DNA of 50,230 nucleotides from SAR202 cluster bacterium (GTDB lineage: Bacteria; Chloroflexota; Dehalococcoidia; Lucifugimonadales; GCA-2712585), in contig VGZZ01000015.1 of assembly GCA_016872285.1 (NCBI GenBank), forward strand, positions 1 to 50,230, in the 5' to 3' direction. Shown here piece by piece: positions 9,880 to 23,203 of this stretch. The number at the start of each line of letters is the position of its first letter. Position 1 is the first letter of the stretch. The translations under genes and the position numbers were made by a program. The notes under the pieces were generated by a model that was not told where the DNA came from, did no database searches, and was given only the letters and a program-made list of their open reading frames with translations.

Positions 9880-10575
9880 TTAGCGGTACTTGTAAAAGCA
9901 GGGCGTACAAAGAGGTTTGGCGTGAGTAGTGGGGAACAAAGTGCCACATGCGTGGCAGAACTCCTCGATGTAATCCTCATTCTCATACTCCGACCAACTG
10001 TCAAAACAGCTCTCACAGAGCGGTCTAGCACGATCAAAGGGAATTGATCTTTTGCAACGAATACACATGCCTCTGTCTGAAATAACATTAGAAACGGTTC
10101 TAGTAACTTGCTGAATGAAGTTGGGGACGGCGCTTCCGCCAACTTGCCTGGACAATTTCATCAGCCGATTCTCGACATAGTCTCGTATTTCACGTTCCGT
10201 TTGCTCATCTCTTATAGCTAGAGCGATCTCTTTAGAGTTCTGTGTAGAGTAGTTAGTGAAATTCATTGAGCTTACGAGTACATCATTCTCGTTTAGGTAA
10301 ATTTTGGCATGCAAACGATCAACTGCGAGGACTTTAATCCCAGATTGTGAGAGTTCTATCACCTGAGGACTTTCAATGATTTTGGGCTCATTGCGAACAA
10401 TTACAGTGACTTTCACTTTGTTTTTGAGGGCTAAAACTAGGTCATCTACTGCGTGTCCCCAATACTCAAAGTACGGGGATACGATGGTCACTGATTTTTT
10501 TGCTTGCCTGATGATATTAAGTACCTGAGAGGCTACTTCGTCGTCTGTGAAGACGGCCTTGACATATGGTGCCAT
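9880..10575 (-). CDS. PLD-like protein with two C-terminal zinc ribbons
   Basis: Phospholipase D-superfamily protein of 231 residues with one HKD-type motif: H89-A-K91, then D98 and the downstream SSMNF/Asn segment. A single motif per chain suggests a dimeric nuclease of the Nuc/bacterial endonuclease type rather than a lipase. The C terminus has two Cys4 clusters, C171/C174/C187/C190 and C207/C210/C223/C226, which look like paired zinc ribbons for nucleic acid or protein contact. The start ATG at 10575 is chosen because GGGAGG lies five bases upstream; the frame extends to a TTG at 10590 that overlaps no ribosome site. No signal peptide. It is divergent from an amidase and stands alone. Its base composition is more AT-rich than its neighbours, suggesting acquisition. 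Possible roles are DNA repair, restriction or RNA processing; none is proven. Confidence 0.8.
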   Translation of the reverse strand: MAPYVKAVFTDDEVASQVLNIIRQAKKSVTIVSPYFEYWGHAVDDLVLALKNKVKVTVIVRNEPKIIESPQVIELSQSGIKVLAVDRLHAKIYLNENDVLVSSMNFTNYSTQNSKEIALAIRDEQTEREIRDYVENRLMKLSRQVGGSAVPNFIQQVTRTVSNVISDRGMCIRCKRSIPFDRARPLCESCFDSWSEYENEDYIEEFCHACGTLFPTTHAKPLCTPCFYKYR

Positions 10576-10585
10576 GGAACCTCCC

Positions 10586-10614
10586 TTCAACAGGTGGTTG
10601 GCGGTGAGTATAAT
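10586..10614 (+). promoter_or_regulatory. Candidate promoter of the amidase gene, overlapping the divergent one
   Basis: TATAAT (10609-10614) is a consensus -10 on the plus strand; TTCAAC (10586-10591) is a weak -35 at 17 bases. The -10 boxes of the two divergent promoters overlap on opposite strands, so polymerase could not occupy both at once. Confidence 0.45.
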
Positions 10615-10662: not shown

Positions 10663-12072
10663 ATGGCAGGAATTGATTTGAAGGAGGCGACGATTGCGGG
10701 GGTTAGCGAGCTGATTAAGGCTAAGAAGGTGTCGCCGGTGGAGGTTACGGAGGCGACGCTGCGTCGCATAGAGAAGTTGAACCCGATACTGAAGTGTTTC
10801 ACGACGGTGACGGGCGAGTATGCGATGTCGAAGGCAAAGGAGGCGGAGAAGGAGGTGATGGCGGGGAGGTATAAGGGGCCGCTGCACGGGATACCATACA
10901 CGCTGAAGGACTTAATCGATACAAAGGGGATAAGGACGACGTATGGGTATTCGAGCCACCAAGACTACGTGCCAAATCGCAGCGCGCGGGTGCACGAGCT
11001 GATGGAGGAGGCGGGCGGGATTTTGGTGGGAAAGGTAGACTGCCATTTCAGGCGCGACGTGGCAGTACAGTGCTACAACCCGTGGGACCTGGAGAGGTCG
11101 CCGGGGCATTCCAGCTCGGGGTCGGGGTCGGCGGTGGGGGCGTCGCTGGGGCTGACATCGATAGGGAGCGACACAGGGGGGTCGGTGAGGATACCGGCGG
11201 CGTGGTCGGGAGTGGTGGGGATGAAGACGACGTTTGGGCTGATGACGCGTCACAATCTATTTGGGCCGTCGTGGTCGTTCGACCAGGCGGGGCCGCTGGC
11301 GAAGACAGTGGAGGATACGGCGATTGTTCTGCAGGCGATAGCGGGATATGACCATGAGGACCCGGTGAGCATCGCGGGGGAGAGGCCAGACTATCGAAAG
11401 GGGCTAAAGGGAGGGATCAAGGGGCTGAGGGTGGGGGTGCTGGAGGAGTATGTGGGTTCGCACTCCACGGAGGAGGTAGAGGCGTCGGTGCGGGAGGCGG
11501 TGAGAGTGTTGGAGAGGTTAGGGGCGACGTCGAGGGCGGTGGAGATAGCGGAGGTGGGCGAGTTTCCGAACGTACACAACACGATTGTCGATTTAGAGTC
11601 GGCGGTGTACTACTACCAGCAGTTCCCGCCGGAGCGGATGGAGCAGATCAACCCCGATATGAAGGGGCGGCTGAAGCGGGGCTTTGAGATTACCATGTCG
11701 CAGTACATAAAGGCGCAGGAGAAGCTGGCGTTCTTGCGACGGGAGGTGGAGAGGGTGTTCCGAGAGGTGGACGTGGTAGTGTCGCCGACGTGCCTGACGC
11801 CGCCGCTGAAGGTGGGGCAGACAAGGAGCAAGATAACGGTGCGTGGGAAAGAAGTGGACGCGCGGACGCTGACGCTTCGGAACACGTCGATATCCAGCGA
11901 TTGCCACTTGCCTGCGATAAGCGTGCCGTGCGGGTTTGCGGAGGGGCCAAGGGGGCCGCTGCCCATTGGGCTGCATATCATAGGGAGGCGGCTGGAGGAT
12001 GCGCTGGTGCTTCGGGCGGCGTACGCATACGAGCAGGCGACGGAGTGGCATAAGCGGAGGGCGCCACTGTAG
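10663..12072 (+). CDS. Amidase (amidase signature family)
   Basis: Amidase-signature hydrolase of 469 residues, which cleaves carboxylic amides to acid and ammonia. The Ser-cisSer-Lys triad is visible: K82 in YTLKDLID, cis-Ser S150 in GHSSSGSGSA, and nucleophile S174 in SDTGGSVRIP, with the normal 24-residue spacing. The glycine-rich block starts GH instead of GG, a minor departure. The GatA subunit of aspartyl/glutamyl-tRNA amidotransferase is a paralogue, but there is no gatB or gatC nearby, so a stand-alone catabolic amidase is more likely. The start ATG has GAGGGAG upstream. It is one of three amidases in the window. Confidence 0.9.
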   Translation: MAGIDLKEATIAGVSELIKAKKVSPVEVTEATLRRIEKLNPILKCFTTVTGEYAMSKAKEAEKEVMAGRYKGPLHGIPYTLKDLIDTKGIRTTYGYSSHQDYVPNRSARVHELMEEAGGILVGKVDCHFRRDVAVQCYNPWDLERSPGHSSSGSGSAVGASLGLTSIGSDTGGSVRIPAAWSGVVGMKTTFGLMTRHNLFGPSWSFDQAGPLAKTVEDTAIVLQAIAGYDHEDPVSIAGERPDYRKGLKGGIKGLRVGVLEEYVGSHSTEEVEASVREAVRVLERLGATSRAVEIAEVGEFPNVHNTIVDLESAVYYYQQFPPERMEQINPDMKGRLKRGFEITMSQYIKAQEKLAFLRREVERVFREVDVVVSPTCLTPPLKVGQTRSKITVRGKEVDARTLTLRNTSISSDCHLPAISVPCGFAEGPRGPLPIGLHIIGRRLEDALVLRAAYAYEQATEWHKRRAPL

Positions 12073-14534: not shown

Positions 14535-14798
14535 TCAGGTGTTGAGAAGGGCTTCGCCTTCAGAGGCTGCCCTCAATAAATCTATCAACCTGCGCACAGG
14601 CACAGTGTCAAATTCGGGGGCTTTCATGGGGAGGGTAGCGGTTACGCGGTAGTGGTTGACACGGCCAACCAGGCGTTTGCTGACGTATCCAGCGTCCATG
14701 AGCTGCGAAATAATCCTTCTTATTGAAGGCTCGGCGATACCTAAGGAATCTGAAATCACACGCACAGTTACCTTTTCGTGTTTATCGATAAATACCAA
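14535..14798 (-). CDS. Small winged-helix (MarR-like) regulator, start uncertain
   Basis: Winged helix-turn-helix protein of about 87 residues as annotated. The recognition region includes DSLGIAEPSIRRIISQLMDAGYV and the wing GRVNHYRV, matching a common small family of regulators in Actinobacteria and Chloroflexota. The only canonical start in frame is TTG at 14796-14798. Upstream the frame remains open to about 14894 and encodes WRFLTNHARVLV, which is the normal N terminus of this family, yet it has no ATG, GTG or TTG. The gene has therefore either lost its start codon, uses a rare one (ATT at 14841-14843 is in frame) or contains an error. The region is AT-rich. Confidence 0.6.
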   Translation of the reverse strand: MVFIDKHEKVTVRVISDSLGIAEPSIRRIISQLMDAGYVSKRLVGRVNHYRVTATLPMKAPEFDTVPVRRLIDLLRAASEGEALLNT

Positions 14799-18217: not shown

Positions 18218-19744
18218 GTGGTATTCCACCAAAGTAGTGTTAACTATCAAAATCTCATTCGTGATCTAGCCGAGATGTATCCCATCGAGGTCCCAGAGGT
18301 AGTAGTTATCGAGCTAATCGCAAATTCTCTGGATGCGAAGGCAACGCGGATTAGCGTTGAATACAACGCTCAACAGAAAGTGTTGGTCATTACGGATGAT
18401 GGACATGGAATGACTGCAAACCAATTTGGGGAATACCACGATTTTGCCGCAGGTCTAAAGTCTCGTGGCACTGGAATTGGGTTCGCTGGGGTGGGTGCAA
18501 AGATAAGCTTCAATGTGGCAGATAGAGTAATAACCGAAACTAGAGGGGATAGTTTCAGCGGAGGATCAGATTGGTATTTAGAATCAGCAAAGAAATTGGT
18601 TTGGAAAGAAATACAACCGTCACGTCTAAGGCTAAACGGTACGAGGGTGGAAGTTCAATTTCGGAAAGATGTGCAACCTCCTTACGACTCCACCGAGGAC
18701 TTAGTTAACTTAATTGCACGTAACTATTTGCCCTTACTAGATACCAAGTTTCTCCAACTATACGGGGCGCTGAAGCTGTATCCTGGCGGCCTCAGATTTG
18801 TCGTTAATGGACAAGAGATTGCTCCCAGCGATATCGCAAATACTTATCGGTTGGACAAGGTACACAGGTTTTACCCTGAAAAGAGCCGTAAGCGTTACGG
18901 GCATGGTATTTTTGGAATCGGCCTATCTGATTACCCGATAGGAGCCGGAATTTGTGGTGTTCTACTCTGCACTCGTGGGAAGGTCGTTAAAGCCGACTTT
19001 CTAGGGCAGTTTCCAGGTGCCCTAGGTACGAGGATATTGGGGATAGTTGAGGTTCCACCTTTTGTGGACTATCTCACGACTGCAAAAACTGACTTTATCC
19101 GCAGTAGAGGAAAGTTAAAGGAATTTGAGTCGTTTTATGACCCCATCCGACAGGAATTCAAAGCATGGCTCAAGGATGTGGGTGTAGAACAGCCAGAAGT
19201 AGCCGCACCAGATGAGGCTGCAAAGTTGGAGAGAGAGCTTAGAAAAATTATAGATGAAGTTCCAGAACTGTCCGAGTTTTTTGGTTTTAGAGTCAGAAGA
19301 GAAGTACCTCATAGTGATGAGAACGGTTCCATGAAGGCCGAGACACATGAAGGTATTCAGCACACTTTTCCTATGGGAGAGGGAGAAAAAGGGGACAATC
19401 CAGGGCCGTTAGACATTGGGGAAGATCCTGGACAGACTTTAGAGGAGGCAAAAGATACAGGAACGCAGAAGGCTACACCAATAGGAAGAACTTCAAAAAG
19501 AGGGCCGAAGATCGCGTTTGCATCGGCTCCTGAGCGTATTGATCTCGCTTGGGCAGATGGGAACACTGTGATGATAAACACTGGGCATCCCGGCTATGAA
19601 AAATCGCGTTCCAATCCATCAGCACGGAATTTGCACAACATATTCTCCATAGCTGGCGCAGTCCAAAAAGTGTTAGTAAGTCCAGATGGGAAAGTTGATG
19701 CAGTTTTTGTGGACAGAATGATTGCAGCCTGGGGCAGGAAATGA
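18218..19744 (+). CDS. GHKL ATPase, MutL/MORC/Hsp90-like
   Basis: ATP-binding protein of 508 residues. The GTG start is chosen because GGAGG (18206-18210) lies seven bases upstream; the frame also extends to a TTG at 18161 without a ribosome site. GHKL motifs are clear: N-box with E32 and N36 in IELIANSLDA, G1 motif DDGHGM (60-65), G2 motif GTGIGFAGVGAK (84-95). The middle region ends with VPPFVDYLTTAKTDF, matching the S5-type transducer domain with its catalytic Lys loop in MutL/MORC proteins. A charged linker (about 330-430) leads to a C-terminal block containing VMINTGHPGY and RNLHNIFSIAGAV, seen in prokaryotic MORC-like ATPases. No nuclease motif is visible. It is the first gene of a three-gene operon, overlapping the next by ATGA. 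The operon is AT-richer than flanking genes, consistent with horizontal transfer. A role as ATP-driven clamp on DNA or protein complexes is inference. Confidence 0.82.
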   Translation: MVFHQSSVNYQNLIRDLAEMYPIEVPEVVVIELIANSLDAKATRISVEYNAQQKVLVITDDGHGMTANQFGEYHDFAAGLKSRGTGIGFAGVGAKISFNVADRVITETRGDSFSGGSDWYLESAKKLVWKEIQPSRLRLNGTRVEVQFRKDVQPPYDSTEDLVNLIARNYLPLLDTKFLQLYGALKLYPGGLRFVVNGQEIAPSDIANTYRLDKVHRFYPEKSRKRYGHGIFGIGLSDYPIGAGICGVLLCTRGKVVKADFLGQFPGALGTRILGIVEVPPFVDYLTTAKTDFIRSRGKLKEFESFYDPIRQEFKAWLKDVGVEQPEVAAPDEAAKLERELRKIIDEVPELSEFFGFRVRREVPHSDENGSMKAETHEGIQHTFPMGEGEKGDNPGPLDIGEDPGQTLEEAKDTGTQKATPIGRTSKRGPKIAFASAPERIDLAWADGNTVMINTGHPGYEKSRSNPSARNLHNIFSIAGAVQKVLVSPDGKVDAVFVDRMIAAWGRK

Positions 19745-20226
19745 CGAATAGAAAATTAACATTCATTTCGTTTGAGCCCGTTCAGGGCCATTTTAGAGGA
19801 CTGCTTTCTTTGGATGGGATTCTGTCAAAATCCTGGGATGCAGAGAAAATCACAAGCCAGGCGGCGACTGTGTATGAAAACCATATTGCGAAAATGCGTC
19901 AGGTATTTGCCGAAATATATGGCCTCCGAAAGGCACGTAGGCTTACACCCGCTCGAAAGGTCTGGGAGATGGGGGACTATATTTTTGCTCTAAGAAATTC
20001 TTTGGATTCTATGTCTTTGGAAATCGACAGTATTTACCACCATCTCGAACGAGATTTAGGTGCAAAGCGAAAGTGGCTTGAAAAGGCGATTATCCTGAGG
20101 CGTTATGTGCATAGGGCAGACATGATACCTGAGGATCTAAACTGGGGAAGACTTGAGAAGGGAACGAGGAAAGCTGCGGAGATGATTTCAAAGGGCCTGG
20201 CACTGCCCAAACGTGGAAGGAAGTGA
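19741..20226 (+). CDS. Unrecognised 161-residue helical protein of the GHKL operon
   Basis: I do not recognise this family. The start ATG overlaps the stop of the GHKL ATPase gene in ATGA, so translation is coupled. The protein is basic, lacks signal peptide, membrane segment and cysteine pairs, and from about residue 35 onward looks almost entirely alpha-helical, with a motif-like stretch around LGAKRKWLEKAIILRRYV that could be a helix-turn-helix or an interaction helix. The first 30 residues (ISFEPVQGHFRGLLSLDG) may form a small strand-rich portion. It most likely bridges the ATPase and the DNA-binding protein encoded after it. That role is inferred from operon position only. Confidence 0.7.
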   Translation: MTNRKLTFISFEPVQGHFRGLLSLDGILSKSWDAEKITSQAATVYENHIAKMRQVFAEIYGLRKARRLTPARKVWEMGDYIFALRNSLDSMSLEIDSIYHHLERDLGAKRKWLEKAIILRRYVHRADMIPEDLNWGRLEKGTRKAAEMISKGLALPKRGRK

Positions 20227-21758
20227 TGGATGACCTTGATTTAAGTTACTACCTCTCAGAGTTCTCGTCATATAACCACGCATTCCAGATTTCTGATGTC
20301 CTTGACCGCGTTGAGTCTAGTGGAAGTGAAGAGATTTTAAGGCACTTTTTCTGGAATGATCCCCGGTTCATCCGCTTAGGCGAGAGGGATAAAGGGCAGG
20401 AATACTTCATAACTGACAAAGCATTATTTCTTTGGCTTGCTAACCTGAACATTAGAATTGCGGAAACTAAACCCTTTATTCAGCACACAAAACTGACATT
20501 AACTCAACTGAAGCCCAAGCTGTCTTCGTTGCTTATTCGGGATGGTAGCCTGCCAATAATAAATCAGGTCATAGAATATGGATCGCAATATGGGTTGATA
20601 AAACGTTCGATAAATCCTGAATGCGTAGTTTTTCCTATTGCTCACTTTTTGTCTCTTTTTAGTGATAAGACGAGGTGCAGAGCCGCCCGCTTAATGTTGG
20701 CATTGGCTGATAAGGAGACGAGACAGAAACTCTTGAGTCGGTTACTTGTGGATCATATGGAGCTTGCCTTTTCAAAGCTTGATGCGAGAACGGTTCTAAT
20801 CGTAAAGCAGCGGGAAGGCATTTTTAATCATCCAACGAGAACACTCGAGGAAATTGGCAAGGACTTGTCTGTGACAAGGGAAAGGGTAAGGCAAATCCAG
20901 GCCAAATTTTTTAAGAAGATGAAGCATCCAACACGGAGAACCCCATTACTGCTCCAATTTGAGTGTGATTTGATACAAAATAGGGGCACTCTATTGGTAG
21001 ATACAAACACTGTAGAAGGTTCTCTGAGAAGATTTGTGACTAAGTGCCTTGACGTCCCACACGCAGATTTTGACGAAATAGGGGTATCGTTGTTGGGGGC
21101 CAAATGGTTTGATATTAGCAATTTCAAAAACTCTTTCTGGCGGATCAAACCCGTGGAGGCACTAGGGTTATTTGGAGAGCTACTAGAGGCTAAAAGCGGT
21201 CTATCTCTAGCAGATACGGACGTTCAGGAATTATTTGATAGGATGAATTTACGTAAGGTACACGAATTGACGCGTGGACAAAGGGTGCACCTTGTCCTCA
21301 AACAGATTGGGCGTCCTGCTCACTACTCGGAAGTCACTGAAATACATAACAAGATGTTTCCAGACAGTGCGACAACGCAACGCAACATTCATGCGACTCT
21401 TTCTTATGAACAGCATGGCGTAGTCTGGATTGGAATGCGCGGAACGTTTGCGTTAGAGGAGTGGGGTTACGAAAAACCCGCAAAGGGTCTATATGAAACA
21501 GTCGCAGATATAGTTAATGAAATCTATATGGACACAGAAAAACCCGTGTCCTTTGCAACCATTGTTGCGGAGATGGGTAAATACCGCAAACTGGTTAATC
21601 AATCGAGCCTTGTCTTTGCGGCTCACTTTAATCCTCAGGTCAAACGTGTTGCTAAAGATGCATTTGTTCCTAAGGGCCTGGAAGATGACGTAGTGTCTGA
21701 CATGTCGGAGGACGAGCTGGATAATTTACTCCGGGAATTTGAAGATAAAGTGGCTTGA
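20226..21758 (+). CDS. Sigma-region-4-like HTH plus HARE-HTH DNA-binding protein
   Basis: Multi-HTH protein of 510 residues. The start ATG at 20226 overlaps the previous stop (TGATG) and has GGAAGG five bases upstream; a GTG at 20223 is the alternative. An N-terminal segment (about 20-80, including FFWNDPRFIRLG) looks like a winged helix. Residues 185-235 are very close to sigma-70 region 4: TLEEIGKDLSVTRERVRQIQAK is split here by convention at residues 207-227. Residues 350-414 fit a HARE-HTH winged helix, with GRPAHYSEV and the strand GMRGTFALEEWG. There is no region 2, so it is not a normal sigma factor. HARE-HTH domains are known from restriction, DNA-modification and chromatin contexts. 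As last gene of the GHKL operon it is likely the DNA-recognition component. The C terminus is acidic. Confidence 0.8.
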   Translation: MDDLDLSYYLSEFSSYNHAFQISDVLDRVESSGSEEILRHFFWNDPRFIRLGERDKGQEYFITDKALFLWLANLNIRIAETKPFIQHTKLTLTQLKPKLSSLLIRDGSLPIINQVIEYGSQYGLIKRSINPECVVFPIAHFLSLFSDKTRCRAARLMLALADKETRQKLLSRLLVDHMELAFSKLDARTVLIVKQREGIFNHPTRTLEEIGKDLSVTRERVRQIQAKFFKKMKHPTRRTPLLLQFECDLIQNRGTLLVDTNTVEGSLRRFVTKCLDVPHADFDEIGVSLLGAKWFDISNFKNSFWRIKPVEALGLFGELLEAKSGLSLADTDVQELFDRMNLRKVHELTRGQRVHLVLKQIGRPAHYSEVTEIHNKMFPDSATTQRNIHATLSYEQHGVVWIGMRGTFALEEWGYEKPAKGLYETVADIVNEIYMDTEKPVSFATIVAEMGKYRKLVNQSSLVFAAHFNPQVKRVAKDAFVPKGLEDDVVSDMSEDELDNLLREFEDKVA

Positions 21759-21784: not shown

Positions 21785-23203
21785 ATGTCATTGAACAAAG
21801 AATTGGCGTTTAAGCCGGCGTGGGAGCTGAGGGGGATGCTGGCGGCGCGGAAGGTGTCGTCGGTGGAGGTGACGGAGGTTTATCTGCGGCGCATCGAGGC
21901 CATGAACTCGAAGCTGAACGCGTACTTGACGGTGGACGGGGAGGGAGCAATGGCGCAGGCCCGGGAGGCGGACAGGCGGCTGGCGAAGGGCGATAAGGCG
22001 CTGCTGCTGGGGGTGCCGATAGCGATTAAGGACCTGGAGTTGACGAAGGGGCTGAGGACGACGATGGGGTCGCTGGTATATAAGGATTTTATGCCGGACT
22101 GGGATGGGGCGGTGAGCGAGCGGGTGAAGAGGGCGGGGGCGGTGGTGCTGGGGAAGACAAACACGCCGGAGTTTGGGTTTGCGGGGACGAATGAGAACCG
22201 GCTGGGAGATGCGTGCCGCAACCCCTGGGACGTGTCGCGGACTAGTGGGGGGTCCAGTGGGGGGAGCGCTGCGGCGGTGGCGTCGGGTCTGTGTGCGCTG
22301 GCGACGGGGAGCGATGGCGGAGGGTCGATTCGCATACCGGCGAGCTTCTGCGGGATTTACGGAATAAAGCCGACGCTGGGACGGATACCTCGGTTCGGTG
22401 GGTTGGGGAAACCGGCGCCGAACCTGACGTCGCAGTCGGGGCCGCTGACTCGGACGGTGCGGGACTCGGCGCTGTTATTGCAGGCGCTGGCGGGGCCTGA
22501 CGAGCGGGACGTCATGTCGATGCGGGAAACGCCGCCGGACTTTGTCGCGTCGCTCAAGCAAGGAGTCAAGGGACTGAGGGTGGCGTGGAGCGGGGACCTG
22601 GGGTACGCAGCGGTGGAGCCGGAAGTGGAGGCTATCGCGAGGAAGGGGGCGATGGCGCTGGGAGAGCTGGGGTGCGAGGTGGAGGAGCCTGGGCTGTCGT
22701 TGGAGTACCCGCTGCTGGACTTCGTGAGCATTTTTTCGACGGGCGGGTACGCGTCGTACGGGCACTTGCAATTGGAGCATGAGGATAAGTTGACGGACTA
22801 TGTCATTGAGAACTTTGAGCGGGGGAAGAAGGTCAGCGGGTTGGAGTACGCGAGGTCGCTGAACGCGGTGATGAGGATGACGGCGCAGGTTAGCCAGTGG
22901 ATGGATAAGTACGACTTGCTGGTGACGCCGACGATGGCGGTGGCGGCGTTCGCCGTGGGGAAGAACCCGGCGGAGATAGCGGGGAGGAAAGCGTACCCTC
23001 GATGGGACTTTATGCCGTACACGCCTGTGTTCAACCTGACGGGACAGCCGGCGGCTAGCGCGCCGTGCGGGTTTACGTCAGGTGGGCTGCCGGTGGGACT
23101 TCACATAATAGGACGGCGAGGGGCGGAGGCTACGGTACTTAGGGCGTCGGCGGCGCTGGAGTCGGCGAGGCCGTGGTCGGGGCAGGCGCCGGCGGTGTCG
23201 TAG
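21785..23203 (+). CDS. Amidase (amidase signature family)
   Basis: Amidase of 472 residues with a canonical triad: K82 in IAIKDLEL, cis-Ser S157 in [10 protein letters not shown], and nucleophile S181 in [11 protein letters not shown], where the usual DTGGS is DGGGS. It belongs to the same family as the genes at 10663 and 29735 but is not their closest duplicate, because the substrate-binding region after residue 200 differs strongly. It follows the GHKL operon by 26 bases and returns abruptly to GC-rich codon use, so it is probably a chance neighbour marking the edge of the acquired segment. There is no clear Shine-Dalgarno sequence before the ATG. Likely substrates are carboxamides; GatA is excluded only by lack of gatBC. 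Confidence 0.9.

What the first reader, a model, noticed from the sequence alone, without database searches (positions are those of the whole stretch)
18218..21758. Three-gene GHKL-ATPase / unknown / sigma4-HARE-HTH operon, candidate undescribed defence or DNA-sensing system
Seen: three genes overlap by 1 to 4 bases, use a more AT-rich codon style than their GC-rich neighbours, and end abruptly at ordinary genes. Known: MutL/MORC-like GHKL ATPases are linked to restriction-modification in prokaryotes, HARE-HTH domains to DNA modification and conflict systems, and sigma region 4-like HTH to promoter recognition. Inference: the ATPase could be a DNA clamp loaded by a protein that recognises promoter-like or modified DNA, with the 161-residue protein as adaptor. 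I do not know a described system with exactly this composition.
Basis: partly seen in the sequence, partly recalled or inferred. Interest (0 to 1): 0.8.

Follow-up and report, generated by a model that had tools for sequence, protein, structure and literature searches.

The report
Mobile three-gene MORC-like ATPase/promoter-binder cassette
A real, previously unnamed three-gene set that travels as one unit between Chloroflexota bacteria pairs a MORC/MutL-like ATP-driven clamp with a protein carrying the promoter-recognising part of a sigma factor, and may silence foreign DNA, though its function is untested.

Summary
Three co-directional genes (18218-19744, 19741-20226, 20226-21758; GC3 0.41-0.46 against 0.81-0.83 in the flanks) encode a GHKL+S5 ATPase with intact motifs, a 161-aa protein of no known family, and a ~510-aa protein with sigma-70 region 4 embedded among predicted winged-helix domains. 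The set is a genuine unit: it recurs, in the same order and strand, in four other Chloroflexota genomes at unrelated sites. In 343 genomes of the class, independent profiles for the three proteins found the same four genomes; their divergences correlate (r 0.93-0.96). Congeners of one carrier lack it. A divergent two-gene form (ATPase + small protein) and one decayed remnant also exist. Flanks are housekeeping genes (one copy sits between gatC and gatA); no defence island, nuclease, helicase or methylase was found. It is not MZA, the nearest named system: only region 4 and the ATPase motif match. The sigma-like part keeps the -35 recognition helix (TRERxRQ) almost unchanged but no region 2 was found, so it should mark promoters rather than start transcription. 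Best guess: an ATP-driven DNA clamp targeted to promoters of incoming DNA (silencing/defence), confidence about 0.4. HARE-HTH is suggestive only.

The parts
18218..19744 (+). Gene 1: 508-aa GHKL+S5 (paraMORC-like) ATPase. Motif I E32/N36 (ELIANSLDA), motif II D60/G62/G64 (DDGHGM), motif III G88..K95 (GFAGVGAK), motif IV G141-T142, S5 lysine K290 (TTAKTDF); flexible Gly/Pro-rich linker ~358-430; conserved C-terminal domain 431-508 with IN-x-GHP-x-Y motif
19741..20226 (+). Gene 2: 161-aa small protein, no known family, conserved core RDLxxxRKWLEK...WGxxEKGTR; a homologue accompanies the ATPase in every copy including the two-gene form
20226..21758 (+). Gene 3: ~510-aa protein: two predicted N-terminal winged helices (~1-135), sigma-70 region 4 (~172-245), further winged-helix-like domains (~235-290, HARE-like 349-412, C-terminal 420-483). 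Alternative GTG start at 20223
20850..20932 (+). Within gene 3 (approximate limits): region 4.2 recognition helix, ...LSVTRERVRQIQAK..., matching housekeeping sigma factors; T, R, E, R, R, Q invariant in all five copies

Best explanation
An accessory, horizontally moving three-component DNA-binding machine. Protein 3 binds DNA through its sigma-region-4 helix (-35-like promoter elements) and its winged helices; because it has no detectable sigma region 2 it cannot open promoters, so it acts as a promoter/RNA-polymerase marker rather than as a sigma factor. Through the small protein 2 it recruits the GHKL+S5 ATPase, which dimerises on ATP and closes around DNA like MORC or MutL. The result would be promoter-directed clamping or compaction that blocks transcription of incoming DNA (plasmid or phage), without needing a nuclease. 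Shown: conserved three-gene unit, intact ATPase motifs and fold, conserved -35 helix, no nuclease/helicase/methylase domain found, sporadic distribution and foreign composition. Inferred: complex formation, order of recruitment, silencing, anti-phage or anti-plasmid purpose.
For: Same order and strand in five genomes at unrelated sites. In a 343-genome class sample the small protein, ATPase C-terminal and protein 3 (without region 4) profiles each hit the same four genomes; protein 3 also hits a C-terminal remnant in G122 and gives weak short hits in G552. Pairwise identities correlate at r 0.93-0.96. Five congeners of carrier G221 lack it. Cassette GC is 0.44-0.54 in hosts whose neighbouring genes are 0.6-0.7, except G509 whose whole locus is 0.475. 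ATPase model matches MORC2, MORC3, Hsp90 and GyrB GHKL+S5 modules, Z 15-17 over residues ~14-324. Region 4 aligns to SigA with an unbroken VTRER(V/I)RQI helix and structural Z about 10 over 74 residues. MORC2 is described as a DNA compaction machine that suppresses transcription (abstract of PMC12216690, listed); prokaryotic MORC/paraMORC genes mostly sit in restriction-type operons (PMC2292703).
Against: No copy lies in a defence island; several sit among or inside housekeeping operons. No phage, plasmid or viral-contig homologue of the cassette was found. A divergent form lacks protein 3, so promoter targeting may not be the core function. No functional data. Complex formation was not modelled.
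Confidence: 0.4

Rival explanations
1. A transcription-regulating or RNA-polymerase-directed switch: protein 3 competes with sigma region 4 on the beta flap or at -35 elements to reprogramme host genes, and the GHKL ATPase acts as an Hsp90-like chaperone that loads or removes it.
For: Region 4 is the only clearly identified domain of protein 3; the ATPase model is structurally tied between Hsp90/TRAP1 and MORC; no defence context.
Against: A host regulator would be expected to be fixed in a lineage and of host composition; here it is sporadic and compositionally foreign.
Confidence: 0.22
2. A reduced restriction-type system: ATPase, adaptor and DNA reader act like paraMORC modules in restriction systems, with the cutting enzyme supplied elsewhere in the genome.
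For: paraMORC genes are mostly found in restriction-modification neighbourhoods (PMC2292703); a related GHKL ATPase fused to a nuclease protects Vibrio (VcSduA, PMC12137116); a PLD-fold protein lies 7.6 kb upstream in another low-GC patch.
Against: No nuclease, helicase or methylase next to any of the copies examined; the conserved unit ends after gene 3.
Confidence: 0.17
3. A DNA repair or recombination module using a MutL-like clamp.
For: MutL-like motif I scores; the two-gene form in G311 lies between recR and recO.
Against: Other copies lie beside tRNA synthetase, gatA and SDR/amidase genes; sporadic presence; no repair domain; protein 3 resembles promoter-recognition factors.
Confidence: 0.1
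4. A selfish cassette kept by its own addiction or mobility rather than by benefit to the host.
For: Precise placement between operon genes without obvious harm (gatC-cassette-gatA); foreign composition; sporadic.
Against: No transposase, integrase, terminal repeats or toxin found.
Confidence: 0.08

Closest known systems
MZA anti-phage system (MzaABCDE)
   Same: Has a protein with sigma-70 region 4 near its end (MzaA) and an associated ATPase whose family weakly matches gene 1 (MzaB); region 4 of all five gene-3 copies matches MzaA.
   Different: Match limited to MzaA positions 596-662 of 683 (PADLOC) or 639-710 of 726 at 52 bits against a cut-off of 800; MzaB 14.6 bits against 850. No Z1, AIPR or other Mza gene beside the cassette.
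Prokaryotic MORC / paraMORC1-5 (Iyer et al. 2008, PMC2292703)
   Same: GHKL followed by S5 with intact motifs; mobile, sporadic distribution.
   Different: Published ones mostly accompany SF2 helicases, nucleases and methylases; here the partners are a small unknown protein and a region-4/winged-helix protein. Assignment to a named paraMORC subfamily was not tested.
VcSduA (GHKL-Shedu, type I-D; PMC12137116)
   Same: GHKL ATPase with clamp-like middle domain used in phage defence.
   Different: VcSduA is a single protein with a DUF4263 nuclease; no nuclease domain is detected here.
Sigma-70 family factors (SigA/RpoD region 4)
   Same: Region 4 fold and -35 recognition helix.
   Different: No region 2 or other sigma region detected; flanked by predicted winged helices instead.
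HARE-HTH proteins (Pfam PF05066)
   Same: Winged-helix-like stretch 349-412 with a weak HARE match.
   Different: 14.3 bits against a cut-off of 25.9, in one of five members.

Membership tests
MZA system | MzaA over its full length | tested here: not met
   Only the ~70-residue region 4 aligns; 52 bits against cut-off 800
MZA system | MzaB ATPase family | tested here: not met
   14.6 bits against cut-off 850
MZA system | Z1, DUF and AIPR genes adjacent (composition recalled from memory) | tested here: not met
   Flanking genes examined by Pfam: SDR and amidase in the window, GcpE, a class II tRNA synthetase and pheT in G509, HI0933-like in G311, gatA in G512
GHKL+S5 (MORC/paraMORC-type) ATPase | GHKL motifs I-IV intact | tested here: met
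   Pfam HATPase_c_3 4.2e-15; motifs kept in the complete copies; N-terminal part missing from the G221 contig and partly N-masked in G512
GHKL+S5 (MORC/paraMORC-type) ATPase | S5 transducer domain after GHKL | tested here: met
   Model me0a58310bfc1 (mean pLDDT 62.7) aligns to GHKL+S5 of MORC2/3, Hsp90, GyrB, Z 15-17, about 265 residues; does not single out MORC
GHKL+S5 (MORC/paraMORC-type) ATPase | Restriction-type gene neighbourhood (typical, not universal) | tested here: not met
   No nuclease, helicase or methylase beside the copies
MutL mismatch-repair protein | Full-length MutL | tested here: not met
   TIGR00585 41 bits against cut-off 180, residues 23-69 only
Sigma-70 factor | Region 4 with -35 helix | tested here: met
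   Sigma70_r4 in all five copies; VTRERxRQI aligns to SigA
Sigma-70 factor | Region 2 (core binding, -10 melting) | tested here: not met
   No sigma region other than region 4 in Pfam, NCBIfam or solved-structure sequence searches
HARE-HTH | PF05066 above gathering score | tested here: inconclusive
   13-14 bits against 25.9
Shedu (DUF4263) | PD-(D/E)xK DUF4263 nuclease | tested here: not met
   No DUF4263 match in any of the three proteins
Anti-phage defence system | Demonstrated phage protection | not testable with these tools
   Needs an experiment

The most novel reading that the evidence does not exclude
A bacterial counterpart of MORC-based gene silencing: a nuclease-free immune system that recognises promoters (the -35 element or polymerase-bound promoters) on incoming DNA with a sigma-region-4 reader and locks them with an ATP-driven clamp.
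Probability: 0.25. Interest if true: 0.88.

Novelty: new variant of a known kind. Interest (0 to 1): 0.55.

Why it matters
Bacterial MORC-type ATPases are known mostly beside nucleases, and what their clamp does on its own is unclear. A compact natural set of three proteins, with no nuclease and with a built-in promoter reader, offers a direct way to ask whether the ancestral job of MORC-like clamps was to silence foreign DNA. It also suggests that sigma region 4 is used, as in MzaA, as a DNA or polymerase reader outside an ordinary sigma factor.

Tried and rejected
MZA membership: rejected. HARE-HTH: kept only as 'HARE-like'; the HARE stretch found no HARE structure in solved-structure sequences and residues 1-174 of protein 3 found nothing. 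Protein 2: no family or solved relative (best E 0.023, unrelated). Protein 3 searched whole against genomes mostly returns ordinary sigma factors through region 4, so region 4 was removed for the co-occurrence test. An amidase lies just downstream in both the window and G512, but they are only 36% identical and the G512 one looks like GatA, downstream of gatC: judged coincidence. Mobility signals: no transposase or terminal repeats, and promoter/terminator-like sites no more than chance; no Rfam match in the window. Viral-contig scans, phage and plasmid tblastn found no cassette homologue; six weak plasmid ATPase hits are annotated HtpG, histidine kinase or ATP-binding protein. The two genome-contig scans used narrow patterns that would not have matched even the known copies in G509, G311 and G512, so absence outside Chloroflexota is untested. 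G552 hits are short weak winged-helix matches and were not followed. The Foldseek list for protein 3 has no match below E 0.001; MORC was not singled out from Hsp90 or GyrB by structure.

Full report
OBSERVATION. Gene 1 (18218-19744) starts at GTG behind a GGAGGA site. Gene 2 (19741-20226) overlaps it by ATGA. Gene 3 begins at GTG 20223 or, more likely from its relatives, ATG 20226, and ends at 21758. Third-position GC is 0.41-0.46, against 0.81-0.83 in the SDR gene before and the amidase gene after; the drop is sharp on both sides.

WHAT THE PROTEINS ARE. Protein 1 is a GHKL ATPase (HATPase_c_3 4.2e-15) with all four motifs: E32/N36, D60-x-G62-x-G64, G88xxGxGxK95, G141-T142. It is followed by an S5-type domain with the invariant TxKxDF lysine. 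The AlphaFold2 model (mean pLDDT 62.7) matches the GHKL+S5 modules of MORC2, MORC3, Hsp90 and GyrB at Z 15-17 over about 265 residues, which does not choose between them. A poorly predicted, Gly/Pro-rich linker (358-430) leads to a conserved C-terminal domain (INxGHPxY) of unknown fold. Protein 2 has no family or solved relative. Protein 3 (model mean pLDDT 79) is predicted to consist mainly of helix-turn-helix and winged-helix units; only region 4 is identified by sequence and clearly by structure (Z about 10 over 74 residues). Its recognition helix VTRERVRQI aligns without a break to SigA, and T, R, E, R, R, Q are invariant in five copies. In housekeeping sigma factors this helix reads the -35 element (established knowledge; structure 1ku7, SigA region 4 on -35 DNA, is in the match lists). 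No other sigma region was found. The HARE-like stretch is below Pfam's threshold.

THE UNIT IS REAL. Using the small protein as the most specific probe, the set was found in G221 (phylum sample) and in G509, G311 and G512 (class sample). Every copy carries ATPase, small protein and region-4 protein in that order on one strand; in G221 the contig starts inside the ATPase. Identities to the window are 47-59, 45-52 and 28-38%. In the same 343 genomes, profiles of the ATPase C-terminal half and of protein 3 without region 4 recover the same four genomes (the window's own among them); protein 3 alone also finds a 133-residue remnant in G122, and weak winged-helix hits in G552. Pairwise identities of the three proteins correlate at 0.93-0.96 (only five carriers, so ten non-independent pairs). 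Four carriers share the 4-base overlap of genes 1 and 2. Five other genomes of G221's genus lack it. The cassettes are low in GC in hosts of high GC, with G509 the exception because its host locus is itself 0.475 GC. This points to movement as a unit, though no mobility gene or terminal repeat was seen.

A TWO-GENE FORM. G311 carries, about 10 kb from its full copy, a divergent ATPase (29%) and small protein (22%; profile E 1.9e-4) with no region-4 protein, between recR and recO. So ATPase + small protein may be the core and protein 3 a targeting part; this is inference. A search with this divergent ATPase again found only the same carriers, apart from one marginal hit in G484 (E 8e-4).

CONTEXT. 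Flanks are ordinary: SDR and amidase (window); a class II tRNA synthetase of the proS type and pheT (G509); HI0933-like, with seryl- and lysyl/asparaginyl-type tRNA synthetases nearby (G311); gatC and gatA (G512; gatC read from the ORF at 11923-12228 of L045, by its sequence rather than by a Pfam hit). There is no defence island, which is evidence against a defence role but not decisive.

HOW IT PROBABLY WORKS. Protein 3 has the DNA-reading end of a sigma factor without a detectable melting/core-binding part, so it should be able to sit at -35-like sites or touch the polymerase flap but not start transcription. GHKL+S5 ATPases close as dimers around DNA or client proteins (established for MutL, MORC, GyrB and Hsp90). 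The simplest joint reading is promoter-directed loading of an ATP-driven clamp, through protein 2, to block expression of incoming DNA. The anatomy and inheritance are shown; binding, complex formation and purpose are inferred. Rivals are a host-directed transcription switch with an Hsp90-like ATPase, a restriction-type module lacking its nuclease, a repair module, and a selfish cassette.

KNOWN RELATIVES. PADLOC and NCBIfam link protein 3 to MzaA, but only through region 4, and the ATPase to MzaB at 14.6 bits against a cut-off of 850; the other Mza genes are absent. Prokaryotic MORC/paraMORC genes mostly accompany helicases, nucleases and methylases (PMC2292703), and VcSduA fuses a GHKL ATPase to a nuclease (PMC12137116). 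No paper found by the searches describes this composition, with the limit that most subscription papers are not held; the HARE-HTH paper was not held and no MZA paper was found.

LIMITS. Distribution outside Chloroflexota was not properly tested. All carriers are draft genomes, but the same set in five assemblies at different sites argues against contamination.

Noticed in passing
window 9880-10590 (-): 236-aa PLD-fold protein (PLDc_2 3.9e-15) with C-terminal double zinc-ribbon-like cysteines in another low-GC patch, 7.6 kb upstream of the cassette; possible further acquired gene.
   Followed up: partly
window 14535-14798 (-): 87-aa winged-helix (MarR/IclR-like) ORF in a third low-GC patch.
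   Followed up: partly
L048 2290-4343 (G311:C51): Divergent ATPase + small protein pair without the region-4 protein, between recR and recO, about 10 kb from a full cassette.
   Followed up: yes
L005 1483-1884 (G122:C11:15255-15620): Isolated C-terminal remnant of protein 3 (49% identical) with no partners: a decayed copy.
   Followed up: yes
L045 8104-12228 (G512:C48): Cassette sits exactly between gatC and gatA, its last stop codon overlapping the gatA start.
   Followed up: yes
window 10663-12072 and 21785-23203: Two amidase-family genes in one window, hinting at an expanded amidase family in this genome.
   Followed up: no
L060-L063 (G552:C109:5024-5233, C371, C183, C552): Several weak short matches to the HARE-like winged helix of protein 3 in one genome; possible related DNA-binding family.
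   Followed up: no
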